The notes beneath the pieces were generated by a model, which saw only the letters and a list, made by a program, of their open reading frames with translations, was not told the origin of the DNA and searched no databases. Positions 33,005-64,000 of a DNA stretch of 64,000 nucleotides are shown here, one piece after another. Origin of the DNA: Rhyacophila brunnea (Eukaryota > Arthropoda > Insecta > Trichoptera > Rhyacophilidae); contig JAGYXB010001106.1 in the NCBI GenBank assembly GCA_022495005.1, positions 62,001 to 126,000 of the forward strand. Reading direction: 5' to 3'. The position numbers and the translations under genes are program-made. Each line of letters begins with the position of its first letter. Within the stretch, counting starts at the first letter, position 1.

Positions 33005-33495
33005 TTTATAATAAGTATATAATTTTGAAAACTCTCCTGAGAAAATATATTATAACCAATAGGTGTTTTTTTTTGATAAAGTAAGACACCCTGCAGGAAT
33101 CGAACCTGCATCTCTCTGGTTTCGCACCCATGCACATATACCACTATGCTAAAAGCGCCATACTAAATTGCAACAAATTTTAACTTATGGCTCTTAATAT
33201 TCTATGAAGCACTTTCCAATTTGAGCTACTACTATTGGCAATCGGCTTTTGAATTTTTAATCAAAGTAGGTATCTATTACTTTAATTACTAACCAATGTC
33301 ACGGATCACTCCAAGATTTTTTGTTGTAACTTAGGTACTTGTACTTCCTAATAATTTATAATTAACTATTTTTTTATTCAACGAATAATTCACAAGATTT
33401 AAGAATTTAACTTTGTAATTATTGAACATACATAATTTTGAAAACACTTCTGAGAAAATATATTATAACCATCATAAAAAATCTTTTTTGAACAC
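33005..33495 (-). repeat. Repeat S2, best copy, with clean tRNA-like segment
   Basis: On the minus strand at about 33155-33090 the order is TAGCATAGTGGTATATG (A box), CATGGGTGCGAAACC, then GCAGGTTCGATTCCTGC, a perfect B box within a paired T-arm. The acceptor ends do not pair, so it is a pseudo-tRNA promoter. As at 29625-30065, a partial second unit begins at about 33424 (GAACATACATAATTTTG). More fragments lie at 46862-47410 and 58240-58320. Confidence 0.6.
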
Positions 33496-34557: not shown

Positions 34558-35129
34558 AAGTGGCGAAAGTGGCAAAAGGTGGAGATAGGATGTTAAGATC
34601 CGCCATAAATAGTGCACATTAAACTTTGTTAGTCATACGTATTTGTTTTTATTGAACTACGACTACAATTTACGGATGGTGTTGGTTAGTTTTTAAAAAT
34701 CAACTATACCCTAGCTAAACCAAAACATAATAATTTTGGTATATTTTGTACAATCGACAAAATTGTGCACATTTTTTCATTCACATTTATTTGTTTTCGT
34801 TGAATTATGTTGTTGGTTATTTTTTTAAATTAATTAGGCCCTGCCTAAACCAAACTATTATAGATAAAAATATTATTCTAGCTATAAAATATCCAAAATG
34901 ATGTATGATTTAATGGTATATTATATTTATAGCCGAGTGTTTTTTTGACTATTATCTATATTGTGGTTTGGTTTCGCAGGGTTTAAATTAATTAAAAAAA
35001 AACTCACCAACACCATCTGTAAATTTTAGTCTTAGTACAATGAAAACAAATACCTACGTATGACTGACAAAGTTAAGTCTGCACTATTTATGGCGGATCT
35101 TAACAGTCTACCTCCACCTTTCGCCACTG
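34558..35129 (+). mobile_element. hAT-like MITE family A, full-length hairpin copy
   Basis: The left arm contains GTGGCGAAAGTGG, AGGATGTTAAGATCCGCC and ACGGATGGTGTTGGTTAG. The right arm carries their inverses, ending CTTTCGCCACTG. Arms of over 100 bp fold on each other. The copy supplies an uninterrupted reference for the insertion sites in the copy at 50829-56911. Target duplication is decayed. Confidence 0.75.
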
Positions 35130-35139
35130 ATGTCTATGC

Positions 35140-38375: not shown

Positions 38376-38770
38376 GGTTACATGTAAGTTGTACGTATGC
38401 AGTTCATCGTGGGACACTTATTCGTGCGCCACAGTACGTGAAAAATGAGTTCGTATAACATTTTATCAAATGACGAGTTCTTCGTTGAACATTTCACCGT
38501 CGAATACATTTGAACGTATCTTACAAAATGTGGCGATAGTTTGCAAATAGTACTGTTCCAATTAGATTAACCCTAACCTAACCTAACCTAGTAAAGACAT
38601 CTCATAAAATTCCCCACATATTGTAGCATTAGTACAAATATACTCTACGGTGAAATGTTCAACGAAGAACTCGTAATTTGAATAAATGTTACACGAACTC
38701 ATGTTTCACGTACTGCGGCGCACGAATAAGTGTCCTGCGGTGAACTATTTACGTACAAATTTCCGGATAC
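38376..38770 (+). mobile_element. Long-TIR element with telomere-repeat core, copy 2 (perfect 10-bp duplication)
   Basis: GAAATATTAG occurs at 38366-38375 and again at 38771-38780, a perfect 10-bp target duplication. Between them is a 395-bp element whose two arms of about 140 bp pair throughout (GGACACTTATTCGTGCGCC, GACGAGTTCTTCGTTG, ACATTTCACCGT). The loop holds CCCTAACCTAACCTAACC (38572-38590). The left end is GGTTACATG and the right end CCGGATAC. An 8-10 bp duplication with long TIRs fits Mutator-like elements best, but no transposase is present. Confidence 0.85.
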
Positions 38771-40151: not shown

Positions 40152-40672
40152 CAGTGGCTAAGGGTGGACGTAGGCTGTTAAGATTCGAAATAAATAGTAC
40201 ACACTAAACTGTGCCAGTAAAACGTGTTTTTTTTTCATTGAACTAAGCCACAGTAAATAATAGTAAAAAATATGTATTTATCTATAAAGTAGCGAAAATT
40301 TGCTATTAAACCATACATCATTTTAGATATTTTATGGGTAGAAGAACATTTTTTATTTATTATAGTTTGTCATTGGCTGGTTTTAATGAATTTTAATAAA
40401 CTAACCAACATCATCTGTAATATGTAATCATAATTCAACGAAAACAAATACGTATGAATGAAAAGGTTTACACTATTTTTGTCAGATCGCCCATATCATA
40501 CCTAAACTATTATGGTTTGGTTGAGGCAAGGTTTAATTGAATTTTAAAACTAACCAGCACCATCTTCAAACTGTATTCTTAACTCAACGAAAACATATAA
40601 GTATGACTGACAATGTTTAGTATGCACTATTAATATCGGATCTTAACAGCCTACCTCCACCCTTCGCCAATG
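40152..40672 (+). mobile_element. hAT-like MITE family A
   Basis: CAGTGGCTAAGGGTGG ... GGCTGTTAAGATTCG at the left is inverted to GGATCTTAACAGCC ... CCACCCTTCGCCAATG at the right. It includes CTAACCAACATCATCTGT at about 40402, a paralogous empty version of the site where the palindrome entered the copy at 50829. Confidence 0.75.
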
Positions 40673-51156: not shown

Positions 51157-51571
51157 CAGAGCGTTGGAGCGGAGCTCGGAGCAGGAGCATGAAGCACTGG
51201 AGCAATGGGATTTTACCAGGAGCACCGAAAATTTTAGTGCTCCACTGCTCCGGATGTTTTTTTTATTATTAAATTCTCGTCCTAAAATCCAATGATAATA
51301 GTATATTTTGACACTTTGAAAACTGGAATTATTTGAAATATAGCAACACTGCCGAGTAATAAATAACCTCACTTTTTTGACAAAAGAGGCAAATAATGAG
51401 AGACGATTTACTGTCGTTTTTTTTAATAGAATGATTAATAATGAGAATGACGATTATTTTAAAACTACTTATTTTTTTAACATTTGTATACATATAATAC
51501 TTATTATAACTTTTTACCCGGAGTGGAGCTGGAGTGGAGCAACTCAAAAAAGGGTCCGCTCCAACGCTCTG
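51157..51571 (+). mobile_element. hAT-type MITE family B (CAGAGCGTTGGAGCGGA), nested
   Basis: CAGAGCGTTGGAGCGGA and its inverse TCCGCTCCAACGCTCTG bound 415 bp. The flanks are ATAAAAAT (51149-51156) and ATAAAAAC (51572-51579), an 8-bp duplication with one change. The uninterrupted paralogue at about 34866 has a single such site (GATAAAAATATTATTC), confirming insertion. Internal GGAGC repeats are inverted between the halves. The overlapping open frames are not genes. Confidence 0.85.
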
Positions 51572-51725
51572 ATAAAAACTATTCTTCTATCTATAAAATA
51601 TCTAAAATTATGTATGATTTTAATGGCATAATTTTAGATATTTTATAGATAGACAACTATTTTTTTGACCTATGTATTATGGCTTGTTTTACGCAGAGTT
51701 TAACTATTTTTTAAAACTAACCAAC

Positions 51726-54179
51726 TGACACGAGCAGAAACGCCGACCTTCAGTTAGTGTTTGTGGCAGAGTATGGTTTAACGACATAACTATACAAATC
51801 TAGCCTTGTAGTCAATTCTACTTCTCAATAGCCATGCGACAACCTTACGACACGGTTCAGACAGGATATATAAGTCCCATGGTTCTAAACTATGGAAGAA
51901 TCAAGAATGAAATGGTCAAAAAGACCATGAACAGGTAACCACTAGCGTAATCGTTTAGTATTAGGAAGTAAAATGTATGTTGTTAACCTTTTTTTTGTAA
52001 ATGTAATAAAATTTTACGTAAAAAATTTTCGCCTCCGAAAAATCAAGAGTGCTCCAGTGTAATTGGAACGCTGTGACCACAGACCTCGAAATGTCACGTC
52101 GTGAAATATCAGCGCGATGTATTTTTTAATATAAATTTCCGGGAAATCTCCATTAAACTTAGAAAATAAGTTATGGAAGAGATTGTTTACGTAAAATTTG
52201 GCAAGTACATGCTTCAATAACTTTTATAGCAATAATGGAAATGTATGAAAATTGAAAAAGAAAAATTGAATATTTATAAATTTATATACTGTATAATTGT
52301 GAATAAAGAATTTTAATACTAATTTTATCAATACAAGATAGAAGCTAACTACCGTTATAAAAATACTGTAAACGCGTACCTATATTTATAGACGCGTAAT
52401 TATAATTATAGATTTTGTTAATGCTATAACTTACTGACTATAACGAATATTGCAAAAGTAACAATTGGAAAAACTTAAGATTCTGGCATAGATGGGTTTC
52501 TACCCATAAGCAATAATAAATCTTAATCGCATCCTAAGTAATAAAAGAATCAAATACTGCGACTAAAAATACAAATTGACGCGTGACCTTGAACCTTAAC
52601 TGAATTCTGTCCGACTAGAATTTACGGCCCAGCTGTGCTGGCTCGCGAGGTAAAAATAGATTCAAGGTTACATCCATATTACTATATAAAAGTCACTATG
52701 CAAGATTAAATAAGTTAGTAACTGTTCGTGTATAACATCTTGTTAGGATTAAGCATTTATATAATTATTTAAGTTGAAATGTTAAGTATAATATTATAGT
52801 ATTTTCTCGTAATAATATTCGTCCGAAAAGTAAATATCGAATGAGAAAGTTTCTGCGGCTCCAAACAGTTTTATTAAAACTTAGTAAAATTCTATTGGCC
52901 TAAAAAGGCCAAGAGTGGTGGAAAGGACTAGTACGTGGGTGTCAACCTTTCATTTTGAGATTTTAAATTTAAAGACTGCCATTCCCTTATTTAGTACCCG
53001 AATACCTATTCCGATACCTCGTTGGAAAGCTAGAAACTTTCCCCTTCGTTTGAACACGAAAAATCATATAAAATCAACTATTTTGCTTACGTCATCCTAA
53101 CTGCGCATTTAAGGGACATGTTCTAGAGGGTGCTTGAAACACCCCTATCGAGTCTTAATTTTGCGAAAATAAAGTAGAATAAATTTAACCCGACTAAATT
53201 AGAAGATATCTCTATTAGAAAGTTGCCAGGAACGGGAGATATACGTAAATTTATCCCGTGAGAGAAAGATATACATCTGCTATCCCTTACGGACTGTTTC
53301 CTGTTAAACCTCTATCCGGAGGGTATAAAAGGCGACCACTTTTCCCGTAAAATCATTAGTTTCTACACTCTTCACCAGCGATCTTCAGCAAGCAGCAGTC
53401 CTCACTGCAAGCTTGTGAGACATGGTTCTCAGTACATTCGCGATTCATACGTACCAGTAAGTCCCCTTCGACGGGCAAAACGTAGCGCGAATAACACGTA
53501 TCTGTCGGTAGTGCCGTCGGCCGCTAAAACGTAGCACGAATACCACGTATCTGCCGGTAGTGACGTACACGCGGAGTAATTTTATTTTTCATTACTCATC
53601 CTACGAGGTGACGTAATCGGATAAATTACGCGATCGGATTTGTTTTATAAAAACAAATTAATAAACTCAGTCTGTAATAATAAATTTTACAAATCTTTTC
53701 GGGATTATAAAATAAATTTTTGAAACTTTATTAAGTAAACATAATCATAAAATAAATTTTAGTAAACAAATTCATAAACATAAAAACAAATTTTAGTAAA
53801 TAAATTTGTAAACATTAAGCAAACCTTTTGTAAACAAGTTGTAAACACAAATAAATATTTGTAAACATACTGTGAACATAAATAAACTTTATAAACAACA
53901 ATGAAATAAATTCAATTCTTTTTATAAACCCAATACTATGTGACTAAAGAATAATTTATATTTTCTTACGGGAAAATATTTCATGAAATAAAAATATTCA
54001 AAGAATATTTGCGTATACATTCTCCGAGTTAGGTGTGACTTTTTGGAAACTTGTGAAAGATTTCGCAGAGATCCTATAGTGAACAAATAAATAGTTTACT
54101 GATACTTTAATGAGATTTAATTACGAGAACAATGACAGTTAACCTTATTGTGTGACCGTGAACTCTGGTACCTGGATAA
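51726..54179 (+). repeat. Inverted LTR copy lacking its last 138 bp
   Basis: Plus-strand copy of the same LTR from its TGACACG start to CTGGATAA, where it joins the inverted primer site directly. Includes TATAAAA at 53324, an A|GTAAGT splice-donor-like site at about 53459, and a tract of AATAAA/TTTGTAAACA motifs at 53700-53920. The 61-codon frame at 52915-53100 is mirrored at 55423-55608 only because the arms are copies. Confidence 0.7.
53324..53355 (+). promoter_or_regulatory. LTR core promoter: TATA box and initiator
   Basis: TATAAAA at 53324-53330 and TCATTAG with its A at 53355, 31 nt after the TATA start, the usual Pol II spacing in arthropods. It would drive transcription toward the palindrome centre. 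Confidence 0.6.
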
Positions 54180-54197
54180 CCCCAACGTGGGGCGCCA
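54180..54197 (-). other. Primer binding site, tRNA-Lys-like (18 nt)
   Basis: The minus strand reads TGGCGCCCCACGTTGGGG, beginning 3 nt after the LTR end. The known tRNA-Lys primer site is TGGCGCCCAACGTGGGGC, and 15 of 18 positions agree. Exactly 18 nt are present before the junction to the inverted LTR. That is the length copied from a tRNA primer up to its modified A58. Confidence 0.65.
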
Positions 54198-54200
54198 TAA

Positions 54201-56792
54201 TGACATGAGCCACGGCTAGCTCAATAATGCTACCGGGCCGTCCAGGAGCTAGTGATGAACTAGGAGAGGTGGATCTCCTTTGCAGTATCACAACTTTTGA
54301 ATTCCCGAATAAAACTCTCAGCTGGTGTGGTGCCGAATTTATCCAGGTACCAGAGTTCACGGTCACACAATAAGGTTAACTGTCATTGTTCCCGTAATTA
54401 AATCTCATTAAAGTATCAGTAAACTATTTATTTGTTCACTATAGGATCTCTGTGAAATCTTTCACAAATTCCCAAAAAGTCACACCTAATTCAGAGAATG
54501 TATACGCAGATATTCTTTGGATATTTTTAATTCATGAAATATTTTCCCATAAGAAAGAAAATATAATTTATTCTTTGGTCACACAGTATTAGGTTTATAA
54601 AAGAATAGAATTTATTTTATTGTTGTTTATAAAGTTTATTTATGTTCACAGCATGTTTACAAATATTTATTTGTGTTTACAAACTTGTTTACAAAAGGTT
54701 TGCTTAATGTTTACAAATTTATTTACTAAAATTTGTTTTTATGTTTACAAATTTATTTACCAAAACTTGTTTTATAATTATGTTTACTTAATAAAGTTTC
54801 AAAAATTTATTTTATAATCCCGAAAAGATTTGTAAAATTTATTATTACAGACTGAGTTTATTAATTTGTTTTTGTAAAACAAATCCGATCGCGTAATTTA
54901 TCCCGATTACGTCACCTCGTATGATGAGTAATGAAAAATAAAATTACTCCGCGAACGCGTCACTATCGACAGATACGTGGTATTCGAGCTACGTTTTAGC
55001 GGCCGACGTCACTACCGACAGATACGTGTTATTCGCGCTACGTTTTGCCCGTCGAAGGGGACTTACTGGTACGTATGAATCGCGAATGTACTGAGAACCA
55101 TGTCTCACAACTTTGCAGTGAGGACTGCTGCTTGCTGAAGATCGCTGGTGAAGAGTGTAGAAACTAATAATTTTACGGGAAAAGTGGTCGCCTTTTATAC
55201 CCTTCGGATAGAGGTTTAACAGGAAACAGTCCGTAAGGGATAGCAGATGTATATCTTTCTCTCACGGGATAAATTTACGTATATCTCCCGTTCCTGGCAA
55301 CTTTCTAATAGAGATATCTTCTAATTTAGTCGGGTTAAATTTACTCTACTTTATTTTCGCAAAATTAAGACTCAATAGGGGTGTTTCAAGCACCCTCTAG
55401 AACATGTCCCTTAAATGCGCAGTTAGAATGACGTAAGCAAAATAGTTGATTTTATATGATTTTTCGTGTTCAAACGAAGGGGAAAGTTTCTAGCTTTCCA
55501 ACGAGGTATCGGAATAGGTATTCGGGTACTAAATAAGGGAATGGCAGTCTTTAAATTTAAAATGTCAAAATGAAAGGTTGACACCCACGTACTAGTCCTT
55601 TCCACCACTCTTGGCCTTTTTAGGCCAATAGAATTTTACTAAGTTTTAATAAAACTGTTTGGAGCCGCAGAAACTTTCTCATTTGATATTTACTTTTCGG
55701 ACGAATATTATTACGAGAAAATACTATAATATTATACTTAACATTTCAACTTAAATATATAAATGCTTAATCCTAACAAGATGTTATACACGAGCGATTT
55801 ACTAACTTATTTAATCTTGCATAGTGACTTTTATATAGTAATATGGATGTAACCTTGAATCTATTTTTACCTCGCGAGCCAGCACAGCTGGGCCGTAAAT
55901 TCTAGTCGGACAGAATTCAGTTAAAGTTCAAGGTCACACGTAAATTTGTATTTTTAGTTACAGTATTTGATTCTTTTATTACTTAGGATGCGATTAAGAT
56001 TTATTATTGTTTATGGGTAGAAACCCATCTATACCAGAATCTTAAGTTTTTCCAATTGTTACTTTTACAATATTCGTTATAGTCAGTATGTTATAGCATT
56101 AACAAAATCTATAATTATAATTACGCGTCTATAAGTATAGGTACGCGTTTACAGTATTTTTATAACAGTAGTTAGCTTCTATCTTGTATTGATAAAATTA
56201 GTATAAAAATTCTTTATTCACAATTATACAGTATATAAATTTATAAATATTCAATTTTCTTTTCCAATTTTCATACACTTCCATTATTGCTATAAAAGTT
56301 ATTGAAGCATGTACTTGCTAAATTTTACGTAAACAATCTCTCCCATAACTTATTTCCTAAGTTTAATGGAGATTTCCCGGAAATTTATATTAAAAAATAC
56401 ATCGCGCCGATATTTCACGACGTGACATTTCGAGGTCTGTGGTCACAGCGTTCCAATTACACTGGAGCACTCTTGATTTTCGGAGGCGAAAATTTTTTAC
56501 GTAAAATTTTATTACATTTACAAAGAAAAGGTTAACAACATACATTTTACTTCCTAATACTAAACGATTACGCTAATGGTTACCTGTTCATGGTCTTTTT
56601 GACCATTTCATTCTTGATTCTTCCATAGTTTAGAACCATGAGACTTATATATCCTGTCTGAACCGTGTCGTGAGGTTGTCGCATGGCTATTGAGAAGTAG
56701 AATTGACTACAAGGCTAGATTTGTATAGTTATGTCGTTAAACCATACTCTGCCACAAACACTAACTGAAGGTCGGCGTTTTTGTTCGTGTCA
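54201..56792 (-). repeat. Complete long terminal repeat (2592 bp), minus strand
   Basis: Read on the minus strand it begins TGACACGAAC and ends CTCATGTCA, the TG...CA form with 5-bp inverted ends (TGACA/TGTCA) expected of an LTR. A TATAAAA box lies about 1.59 kb in, followed about 31 nt later by an initiator-like TTATTAG. Many AATAAA signals follow downstream. The primer site starts 3 nt past the end. The U3 would be about 1.6 kb and R-U5 about 1 kb, long but within the known range for LTRs. Confidence 0.7.
55168..55199 (-). promoter_or_regulatory. Mirror-image LTR core promoter
   Basis: Minus-strand TATAAAA starts at 55199 and TTATTAG has its A at 55168, the same spacing. The initiator C is changed to T relative to the left arm. 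The two promoters face each other. Confidence 0.55.
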
Positions 56793-56997
56793 TAACACTA
56801 TCTGCATATTGTACTATAAGTTCAATGAAAACAAATACCTATGACTGACAAAATTTAGTGTTAACTATTTATGTCGAATTTTAATAGTACTACTTCCACC
56901 CTTCGCCAATAATGAATTGACGAACCGTAATTTAATAACGATCAGAGAGCAGATCAAAACCGTTGCGCAGAGTAATTAAATTACATGGACTGATTAT

Positions 56998-57214
56998 TAA
57001 AATTTTGGTACTGTTCGGTTATCAGGAATACAGCGGAAAACACATTTTGAAAATACCCGATATACTGGATTATTTGTTAGTTTGGGTTAGTTTAGGTTAG
57101 GTTAGGTTAGGTTAGGTTTGGTTAGGTCAACCTAACAAATAATCCAGTTTATCGGCTATTTTCAAAATGTGTTTTCCGCTGAATTCCTGATAACCGAACA
57201 GTACCAAAATTTTA
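56998..57214. mobile_element. Hairpin element with TTAGG core
   Basis: The left arm (AAAATTTTGGTACTGTTCGG ... AAAACACATTTTGAAAATA ... CTGGATTATTTGTTAG) pairs with the right arm over about 88 bp. The loop is a run of GGTTA units (about 57083-57126). The inner stem (AAATAATCCAGT.TATCGGCTATTTTCA) is the sequence that flanks the telomere core in the elements at 8615 and 57753. Confidence 0.75.
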
Positions 57215-61670: not shown

Positions 61671-61679
61671 ATCTGATAA

Positions 61680-64000
61680 GAATAGAAATTTATAAGACCT
61701 AAAGATGTGGAATCAGCTTTAAAAGGCCTTCATTCAGCAGTGGATTGATACAGGTTGATGACGATAATGACGATATAAATGGGTAGGTATATAAAATCAC
61801 AAATTAAAAAAAATATTGCAGTTTATATGACCAAGAAGAGTAGAATTAGGTTGGGATAACCTTCATCCAGCAGTGGATTAATCTTGGTTGATGATGATAT
61901 TGACGATATTATGAATGGGAAAATATAATATCAGCAATTTTGATAAATATAGTAATTCATATGACCGACAGAAATTCAAACAACTTAGAGAGGCCTTCAT
62001 CCACCGGTGGATTGATTCAGGTTCATAATGATAATGGAAATATAAATAGATATAATATATTATCACCGATTTTGATAAATACAACAATTCAAATGACAGA
62101 AAGGAGTAGAATCAGGCATGGGAGGCCTTTATCCAGCAATAGATGGGTTCAGGTCAATGATGATAAGGACGATAGAAATAGGTATAATATAGTAGTAGAA
62201 TCAGGTTGCGGAACTCGTCATCCAGCAGTGAATTGATCCTGGTTGATGATGATGACGATATGAATATGTAGATAAATGTAATATCACCGATTTTGATAAA
62301 TACAGAAATTCATATCACAGAAAGGAGTAGAATCAGGCTAAGAAGGTCTTTAAGTAGTGGATTGGTTTAGGTCGATGATGATGATGATATGAATATGTAA
62401 ATAAATATAATATCACCGATTTTGATAAATACAGAAATTCATATGACAGAAAAGAGTAGAATCAGGCTAGCGAGGTCTTTATTAAGCAGTGGATTGTTTC
62501 AGGTCGATGATAATGATGATGATAATGATGATAATGACGATATGAATATGTAAATAAATATAATATCACCGATTTTGATAAATACAGCAATTCATATGAC
62601 AGAAAGGAGTAGAATCAAGCTAGGGAGGTCTTTATTAAGCAGTGGATTGGTTTAGGTCGATGATGATGATAATGATAAATGACCATATGAATATGTAGAT
62701 AAATATAATATCACCGATTTTTATAAATACAGCAATGCATATGACAGAAAGGAGTAGAATCAGGCTAAGGAGGTCTTTAAGTAGTGGATTGGTTCAGGTC
62801 AATGATGATGATGATGACGATATGAATATGTAAATAAATATAATATCACCGATTTTGATAAATACAGCAATGCATATGACAGAAAGGAGTAGAATCTGGC
62901 TAGGGAGGTCTTTATTTAGCAGTGGATTGGTTCAGGTCGATGATGATGATGATGATGACAATATGAATATGTAGATAAATATAATATCACCGATTTTGAT
63001 AAATACAGAAATTCATATGACAGAAAGGAGGAGAATTAGGCTAAAGGGGTCTTTATTAAGCAGTGGATTGGTTCAGGTATATGATAATGATGATGATGAT
63101 GATGACGATATGAATATGTAGAAAAATATAATATCTCCGATTTTGATAAATACAGCAATTCATATGACAGAAAGGAGTAGAATCAAGCTAGGGAGGTCTT
63201 TATTAAGCAGTGGATTGGTTCAAGTCGATGATGATGATGATGACGATATGAATATGTAGATAAATATAATATCACCGATTTTGATAAATACAGCAATGCA
63301 TATGACAGAAAGGAGTAGAATCAGGCTAAGGAGGTCTTTAAGTAGTGGATTGGTTCAGGTCAATGATGATGATGATGACGATATGAATATGTAAATAAAT
63401 ATAATATCACCGATTTTGATAAATACAGCAATGCATATGACAGAAAGGAGTAGAATCAGGCTAAGAGGTCTTTAAGTAGTGGATTGGTTCAGGTCAATGA
63501 TGATGATGATGACGATATGAATATGTAAATAAATATAATATCACCGATTTTGATAAATACAGAAATTCATATGACAGAAAGGAGTAGAATCTGGCTAGGG
63601 AGGTCTTTATTAAGCAGTGGATTGGTTCAGGTCGATGATGATGATGATGATGACAATATGAATATGTAGATAAATATAATATCACCGATTTTGATAAATA
63701 CAGAAATTCATATGACAGAAAGGAAGAGAATTAGGCTAAGGGGGTCTTTATTAAGCAGTGGATTGGTTCAGGTATATGATAATGATGATGATGATGATGA
63801 CGATATGAATGTGTAGATACATAATATCACAGATTTTGATAAATACATACATTCATATGACAAAAGGAGTAGAATCAGGCTAAGGAGGTCTTTATTAAAC
63901 AGTGGATGGATCCTGGTTGATGATGATGATGACGATATGAATATTTAAATAAATATAATATCACCGATTTTGATAAATACAGAAATTCATATGACAGAAA
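61680..64000 (+). repeat. Satellite of about 17 units (130-150 bp) built on an RTE LINE 3' end
   Basis: Units contain, in order: ATCACCGATTTTGATAAATA, CATATGACAGAAAGGAG, AGGTCTTTATTAAGCAGTGG, ATTGGTTCAGGTCGATGATG and a GAT microsatellite. The first unit reads AFIQQWIDTG then stop before the tail, the same closing peptide as the LINE end at 39060-39175. GCAGTGG positions recur at roughly 61738, 61871, 62001, 62134, 62226, 62355, 62486, 62639, 62781, 62920, 63061, 63209, 63341, 63476, 63615, 63757 and 63900. The array runs off the right edge. Open frames inside it are repeat artefacts. Confidence 0.9.

What the first reader, a model, noticed from the sequence alone, without database searches (positions are those of the whole stretch)
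51726..56792. A 5-kb near-perfect palindrome made of two inverted LTRs with both U3 ends outward
Seen: two arms of exactly 2454 bp (51726-54179, 54339-56792), inverted, with a 159-bp spacer; the outer ends are TGACACG/CGTGTCA. The spacer plus right arm is a complete LTR (TGACA...TGTCA), and the left arm is the same LTR minus its last 138 bp. Normal integration joins one U3 end and one U5 end to the target. Here both host junctions are U3 ends with a 4-bp duplication. Inference: integrase used two U3 ends of a palindromic cDNA. I know of no standard transposon class with this design.
Basis: partly seen in the sequence, partly recalled or inferred. Interest (0 to 1): 0.92.

Follow-up and report, generated by a model that had tools for sequence, protein, structure and literature searches.

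The report
LTR palindromes fused at primer-binding sites
A 5,067-bp insert flanked by a near-identical 4-bp target duplication is made of two different copies of one retrotransposon's LTR joined tail to tail at a fused primer-binding site, the 22-letter core expected of an untrimmed join occurs (up to two mismatches allowed) at 146 other places in this genome, and it likely arose when two half-finished DNA copies annealed to each other and integrase inserted both of their U3 ends.

Summary
The palindrome is real and is a single integrase-type insertion. Removing 51726-56792 plus 4 bp restores a dispersed repeat that six other segments of the window carry uninterrupted, giving a 4-bp target duplication (CAAC/TAAC, one base changed), the length seen in 24 of 39 fetched stretches with other copies of this LTR. 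Both host junctions are U3 ends. At 46 of 70 sites where the arms differ, both states occur in at least two other genomic copies, so two different family members were joined. The centre gives the mechanism. Ordinary copies have a tRNA-Lys1,2-type primer-binding site (PBS). The centre is what two such PBS ends yield when they anneal to each other (14-nt overlap) and prime each other, minus about 146 bp on one side. I noted this prediction before seeing the family's PBS, which then fitted. The full predicted 22-nt centre (up to 2 mismatches) occurs at 146 places (reversed control 0). Nine were read: six have related arms, three join unrelated LTR-like ends. Best reading: plus-strand strong-stop DNAs anneal PBS to PBS, giving LTR-only dimers with two U3 ends that integrase accepts. 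Outer ends of those 146 loci, and long reads, remain unchecked.

The parts
51722..51725 (.). left copy of the 4-bp target-site duplication, CAAC
   Evidence: empty-site comparison with six repeat segments
51726..54179 (+). left LTR, U3 outward, lacking its last 138 bp
   Evidence: 771 first-look candidates for this arm in the genome, 40 scored
53324..53330 (+). TATA box-like TATAAAA of left LTR (one of ten TATA-like words in the arm, chosen for its context; probable promoter)
   Evidence: function inferred
53457..53462 (+). 5' splice-donor-like GTAAGT
   Evidence: function inferred
54180..54180 (.). one unexplained base (C) at the trimmed junction
   Evidence: filler base inferred
54181..54193 (+). 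CCCAACGTGGGGC = nt 6-18 of the family's PBS in the left LTR's sense
   Evidence: exact match; native family PBS
54194..54197 (-). GCCA = complement of PBS nt 1-4 (TGGC) of the right LTR: the other half of the fused PBS
54198..54200 (-). TTA spacer between LTR end and PBS, as in ordinary 5' LTR copies
54201..56792 (-). right LTR, complete (2592 bp), U3 outward
   Evidence: 777 first-look candidates in the genome, 40 scored
55193..55199 (-). TATA box-like TATAAAA of right LTR
   Evidence: function inferred
56793..56796 (.). right copy of the 4-bp target-site duplication, TAAC (one base differs)
51571..51725 (+). left part of the dispersed repeat that was the target
   Evidence: joined flanks match 34863-35132 across the junction, E 1e-47
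56797..56914 (+). right part of the same target repeat

Best explanation
Two different copies of one LTR were joined tail to tail through a fused primer-binding site and sit in the chromosome as one insertion with a 4-bp target duplication and a U3 end at each junction, which likely happened because the 3' PBS ends of two plus-strand strong-stop DNAs annealed to each other, reverse transcriptase would then have copied each along the other into an LTR dimer with two U3 ends, and integrase likely inserted that dimer. Shown by sequence: single insertion with a 4-bp duplication (one base differs); U3 at both junctions; arms from two family members; PBS-derived centre; the full 22-nt centre, up to 2 mismatches, at 146 other places, nine of them read. 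Inferred: the plus-strand strong-stop stage (it is the step that leaves a U3-R-U5-PBS strand with a free PBS 3' end); that joining preceded integration; that about 146 bp (138 bp of U5, TTA, TGGCG) were later lost on one side of the centre with one base added, as near-perfect palindromes with short loops are fragile.
For: Empty site: six segments, best join with exactly 4 bp removed. Family duplication length is 4 bp in 24 of 39 fetched stretches, none of the 24 extending to 5. Ordinary 5' LTR copies read TGTCA-TTA-TGGCGCCCAACGT(G/A)GGGC-ATCTTC: 10 of 10 family loci other than the window (L067-L072, L074-L077; L070, L072, L075 are the same places as L049, L024, L027; that pattern search selects for similarity). 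The window instead reads TGGCGCCCCACGTTGGG|G: 15 of 18 to the Lys1,2 PBS, 17 of 18 to the predicted PBS:PBS product, a prediction noted before any family copy was seen (on). Two origins of the arms: 46 of 70 differing sites have both states in at least 2 of 40 other copies (45 of 70 with 35 copies). The predicted 22-nt centre TGGCGCCCMACGTKGGGCGCCA, up to 2 mismatches, at 146 places, reversed control 0; the 50 places listed have no mismatch, the other 96 were not listed. Of nine read, six have related arms (0 of 300 shuffles reach the score) and three have unrelated arms. Published precedents, passages seen: plus-strand strong-stop DNA copies 18 nt of the tRNA, and palindromic PBS sequences were proposed to fold or to pair (PMC5651808); RSV integrase performs concerted integration in vitro with donors that have a single, modified U3 end (PMC3579926); hairpins with loops under 9 nt are attacked by the Mre11 complex in yeast (PMC8053094).
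Against: One base of the duplication differs although the right arm has only 2 private changes, so the insertion may be young and the mismatch is then a low-probability event. Private changes are lopsided, left 16, right 2. PBS self-complementarity is not exceptional for its composition: 3206 of 20000 shuffles have as many pairs, 847 of 4000 as low an energy; the 18-mer's own predicted best DNA fold is in another register than the one the centre shows. 5 of the 8 PBS-bearing copies carry another PBS version (AAATGCGTGCGGC). In this family the window is the only copy with the inverted core among the 13 places. The right LTR end differs from the family's (GC in place of AGCCGGG), unexplained. 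Outer ends and duplications of the 146 other loci were not read. No raw reads seen.
Confidence: 0.78

Rival explanations
1. Two separate strong-stop molecules, each folded back into a hairpin at its own PBS and each with one U3 end, were inserted together by integrase as two donors; the cell then opened the hairpin tips and joined them.
For: Same centre letters expected; explains two source copies and the trimmed left side in one repair event; donors with a single U3 end integrate in concert in vitro (PMC3579926, passages).
Against: Needs a chromosome break bridged by repair; would give mostly trimmed, variable centres, whereas 146 places keep the 22-nt centre within 2 mismatches and the 50 listed are exact. 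How many trimmed centres exist was not searched.
Confidence: 0.1
2. Two ordinary cDNA ends were joined by non-homologous end joining, in the particle or the nucleus, before integration.
For: One extra base and no microhomology at 54179/54180 look like end joining (sequence).
Against: End joining would leave variable centres, not the same 14-nt PBS overlap at 146 places. The direct control, a blunt PBS-PBS join pattern, was sent but not answered.
Confidence: 0.06
3. Two normal inverted elements inserted near each other and everything between was deleted.
For: Inverted LTR pairs do exist, e.g. a truncated LTR facing L049's element on C892.
Against: The two outer flanks are the two halves of one target site with a 4-bp duplication; the centre is a PBS fusion, not a random break.
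Confidence: 0.02
4. A terminal-inverted-repeat or foldback DNA transposon (for instance a Ginger-like element with TG..CA ends and 4-bp duplication, features recalled) or a DIRS-like element.
For: Inserted as a unit with long inverted arms and TG..CA ends.
Against: Of 39 fetched stretches with other copies 24 are solo LTRs with 4-bp duplication, 8 continue into a PBS, 3 are preceded by a polypurine tract, 2 are truncated and 2 fit none; the one arm ORF tested has no Pfam match.
Confidence: 0.02
5. Assembly or library artefact.
For: No raw reads were available.
Against: Arms differ by 56 transitions, 13 transversions and 8 indel events, and 46 of 70 differing sites are known family variants on both sides; flanks form one target site with duplication.
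Confidence: 0.02

Closest known systems
Solo LTR
   Same: LTR sequence without body, 4-bp duplication, TG..CA ends
   Different: two LTRs in inverted orientation, U3 at both junctions, PBS retained at the centre, two source copies
Plus-strand strong-stop DNA and the second strand transfer of LTR retroelements (PMC5651808, passages and introduction seen)
   Same: molecule U3-R-U5-PBS with free PBS end, annealing through the PBS, strand displacement through the LTR
   Different: partner is another plus-strand PBS, not the minus-strand PBS; product is an LTR-only inverted dimer that integrates
2-LTR circle junctions (PMC1905944, passages seen)
   Same: LTR-LTR joins called palindromic
   Different: those are U5-U3 joins at LTR ends in circles; here U5 faces U5 through a fused PBS and the molecule is integrated
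DIRS-1 (PMC5633606, passages seen)
   Same: inverted LTRs
   Different: DIRS-1 has ORFs between inverted LTRs and a tyrosine recombinase; here there is no body and there is a target duplication
In vitro concerted integration by RSV integrase of donors with a single U3 end (PMC3579926, passages seen)
   Same: two U3 ends inserted together
   Different: in vitro, separate donors with a modified U3 end; here a chromosomal insertion

Membership tests
LTR of an LTR retrotransposon family | copies occur as solo LTRs with constant-length target duplication | tested here: met
   24 of 39 fetched stretches, each 4 bp, none of the 24 also matching at 5 bp
LTR of an LTR retrotransposon family | 5' copies followed by a tRNA primer-binding site, 3' copies preceded by a polypurine tract | tested here: met
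   8 of 39 with PBS, 3 of 39 preceded by GGGTGGGCATT
Ty3/gypsy superfamily | Gag, RT and integrase of Ty3/gypsy type in the body | tested here: inconclusive
   Retrotrans_gag at 25 bits (cut-off 24.1) in one body and 23.6, just below it, in another; Ty3_capsid below cut-off in both; no RT or integrase match in the 9 ORFs tested
Normal provirus integration | one U3 and one U5 end at the host junctions | tested here: not met
   U3 ends at both junctions
DIRS-like element | tyrosine recombinase body between inverted repeats (PMC5633606 passages), no target duplication (recalled) | tested here: not met
   no body in the 159-bp spacer; 4-bp duplication
Terminal-inverted-repeat / foldback DNA transposon | copies carry the same inverted termini | tested here: not met
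   none of 39 fetched stretches shows an inverted LTR partner within the roughly 0.8 kb fetched beyond U5; classes
Retroviral autointegration product | join at an LTR terminus, CA end (recalled) | tested here: not met
   join lies beyond the LTR end, in the PBS

The most novel reading that the evidence does not exclude
In this genome, plus-strand strong-stop DNAs of many LTR families, even unrelated ones, pair through the self-complementary tRNA-Lys PBS and become body-less tail-to-tail LTR dimers that integrase inserts by two U3 ends: a recurrent dead-end branch of reverse transcription that has left 146 or more palindromic insertions and could seed hairpin RNAs against the parent elements.
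Probability: 0.55. Interest if true: 0.88.

Novelty: new variant of a known kind. Interest (0 to 1): 0.8.

Why it matters
It identifies a side exit from the second strand transfer of reverse transcription and indicates that its product can enter chromosomes through two U3 ends, something known to me only from in vitro assays. The signature is a fixed 22-nt word, so any genome with Lys1,2-primed elements can be scanned for it. Joins between unrelated LTR-like ends (3 of 9 read) would mean that strong-stop DNAs of different elements meet. Such palindromes carry two facing promoters and could produce long hairpin RNA (inference), and they are a source of fragile inverted repeats.

Tried and rejected
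Viral-contig scans: searches found nothing; two searches gave 10 and 1 contigs whose flanks around the word do not resemble the LTR, and the one is GC-rich and full of ORFs. A genome-contig scan found nothing. A divergence change-point near the U3/R border (permutation p 0.006) was first read as a strand-transfer breakpoint; after one search showed that both halves of the arms carry shared family variants I no longer lean on it. Single-molecule self-priming was the first idea (exact 18-nt PBS end) and was dropped because the arms have two sources and the PBS letters did not fit. Mismatch CpG context was not informative. The palindrome at L073 is reliable only over about 430 bp per arm; I take the longer alignment as noise, and its duplication could not be found. 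L066 has the inverted core without a palindrome in 3 kb and stays unexplained. Taxonomy one search was a guess and gave nothing. Pfam on 8 window ORFs gave one match, below its cut-off. Paper searches for this structure; nothing in the listings, or in the passages I opened, described an integrated PBS-PBS LTR dimer; the listings were capped and the library lacks most subscription papers.
Full report
What is there. The window lies in a 1.087-Gb genome held as 2118 contigs (window = C122:62001-126000). The arms 51726-54179 and 54339-56792 are inverted, 2454 bp each, 96.6% identical by BLAST, with a 159-bp spacer. The right part is a complete 2592-bp LTR on the minus strand (56792 to 54201, TGACACG...TGTCA). 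The left LTR, on the plus strand, stops 138 bp short. A TATA-like word (one of ten in each arm, chosen for its context) and a splice-donor-like word point both LTRs inward, so both U3 ends face the host.

It is one insertion. Joining the flanks and dropping 4 bp gives a sequence that aligns across the junction to other segments of a dispersed repeat in the window: 34863-35132, 40508-40671, 50988-50832, 34732-34570, 40264-40483 and 30202-30063 (a weaker seventh, 34903-34771, overlaps the first on the other strand and was not used). Over these six, removing exactly 4 bp scores best (1037.5; 3 bp 1007.5; 5 bp 1008.5; none 992.5); the six had been found with the 4-bp-removed join, which may favour it slightly. 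The duplication is CAAC/TAAC. Of 39 fetched stretches with other copies of this LTR, 24 are solo LTRs with a 4-bp duplication and none of these matches at 5 bp; 8 run into a PBS, 3 follow a polypurine tract, 2 are truncated and 2 fit none of these classes. One ordinary solo LTR (L029) sits at the same place of another copy of that repeat with duplication GAAC. So the palindrome entered as ordinary copies do, but with U3 at both ends, which internal rearrangement of a normal element does not readily produce.

The arms have two sources. In an alignment with 40 other copies the arms differ at 70 sites; at 46 both states occur in at least two other copies, at 6 the rarer state occurs in one, 16 are private to the left arm and 2 to the right. 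Left and right differ by 2.86%, while other copies differ from each other by 3.83% on average (0.73-7.26). The sample was drawn by similarity to the arms and is not random; 777 and 771 first-look candidates existed and 40 were scored in each search; partial copies and L046 were left out of the first alignment.

The centre. Beyond the right LTR's end lie TTA and 18 nt, TGGCGCCCCACGTTGGGG, where the PBS belongs. The published Lys1,2 PBS is TGGCGCCCAACGTGGGGC (PMC8775094, passage); the match is 15 of 18. I proposed that two such PBS ends annealed over nt 5-18 (12 of 14 pairs) and primed each other (note); the product read from the right is TGGCGCCCCACGTTGGGC, 17 of 18. The family's own PBS was then found: TGGCGCCCAACGTGGGGC in L049, one base different in L024 and L027, an altered version in five other copies, and AACGT(G/A)GGGC in 10 of 10 family loci other than the window in the pattern search (three of the ten are L049, L024 and L027 again, and that search selects for similarity). 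None of these has the inverted core. The window therefore carries PBS nt 6-18 of the left molecule followed by the complement of nt 1-4 of the right one; the left LTR's last 138 bp, TTA and TGGCG are missing and one C is extra.

Recurrence. The full predicted centre, TGGCGCCCMACGTKGGGCGCCA with up to 2 mismatches, occurs at 146 places, with 0 for the reversed control; the 50 places listed have no mismatch, the other 96 were not listed. The window itself is not among them because its centre is trimmed. I read 120 bp on each side of nine: L073, met, and eight picked by hand across the list. In six the two sides are homologous (0 of 300 shuffles reach the score); in three (L088, L089, L090) they are not, so unrelated LTR-like ends face each other. 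L091 and L095 belong to one family. That the sides are LTRs rests on their ends (TGACAAT, TGACATT, TAACATT and the like) next to the PBS; full LTRs and outer junctions were not read.

Mechanism. Plus-strand strong-stop DNA is U3-R-U5 plus the 18 nt copied from the tRNA (PMC5651808, introduction and passages). After tRNA removal its PBS end normally pairs with the minus-strand PBS. Here two such ends likely paired with each other; extension with strand displacement would free a linear LTR dimer whose two ends are both genuine U3 ends. RSV integrase joins donors with a single, modified U3 end in concert in vitro (PMC3579926, passages). The central loop of such a dimer, AACGTG, is 6 nt; in yeast the Mre11 complex attacks hairpins with loops under 9 nt (PMC8053094, abstract and passages), which would explain the one-sided central loss. 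The order, dimer first and integration second, is inferred; the reverse order, with two hairpins, is the main rival.

Limits. Self-complementarity of the PBS is not unusual for its base composition. The element body is only partly described: a Gag-like ORF with a Ty3-type match near the cut-off and a second ORF without match. Host species is unknown; TTAGG-like repeats suggest an arthropod (recall). The genome tool answered only four times, so the blunt-join control, the U3-end map and the count of single PBS sites are missing.

Noticed in passing
window 61674-64000: Satellite-like tandem array, unit about 141 bp, at the window's right end.
   Followed up: no
window 33085-33158 (-): tRNA-like match in Rfam (34.5 bits) not called by ARAGORN, possibly a SINE or tRNA fossil.
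   Followed up: no
window 56998-57214 and 38386-38761: Short imperfect palindromes (83% and 78%), the first with GGTTAGG repeats at its tip, MITE-like.
   Followed up: no
L029 and window 51725/56797: An ordinary solo LTR and the palindrome of the same family lie at the same position of two copies of one dispersed repeat, hinting at target-site preference.
   Followed up: partly
L046 (C28:724423-731910): Three LTR copies in direct tandem, two of them starting at LTR position 618.
   Followed up: no
L026, L042, L048, L051, L056: Five PBS-bearing copies share an altered PBS (AAATGCGTGCGGC in place of AACGTGGGGC).
   Followed up: no
L066 (C1926:2809754): Inverted-core PBS word TGGCGCCCCACGTTGGGC after a TGTCA end, but no palindrome within 3 kb; maybe another trimmed dimer or a PBS variant.
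   Followed up: partly
window 54209-54210: Right LTR end reads GCCGTG-GC-TCATGTCA where the family copies read have GCCGTG-AGCCGGG-TCATGTCA.
   Followed up: partly
window 51726-54179: Left arm has 16 private changes against 2 in the right arm; its source may have been an old or unsampled copy.
   Followed up: partly
L059-L061: Bodies of this family show a Gag-like ORF and a 532-aa ORF without Pfam match but no RT or integrase match in the ORFs tested; possibly non-autonomous.
   Followed up: partly
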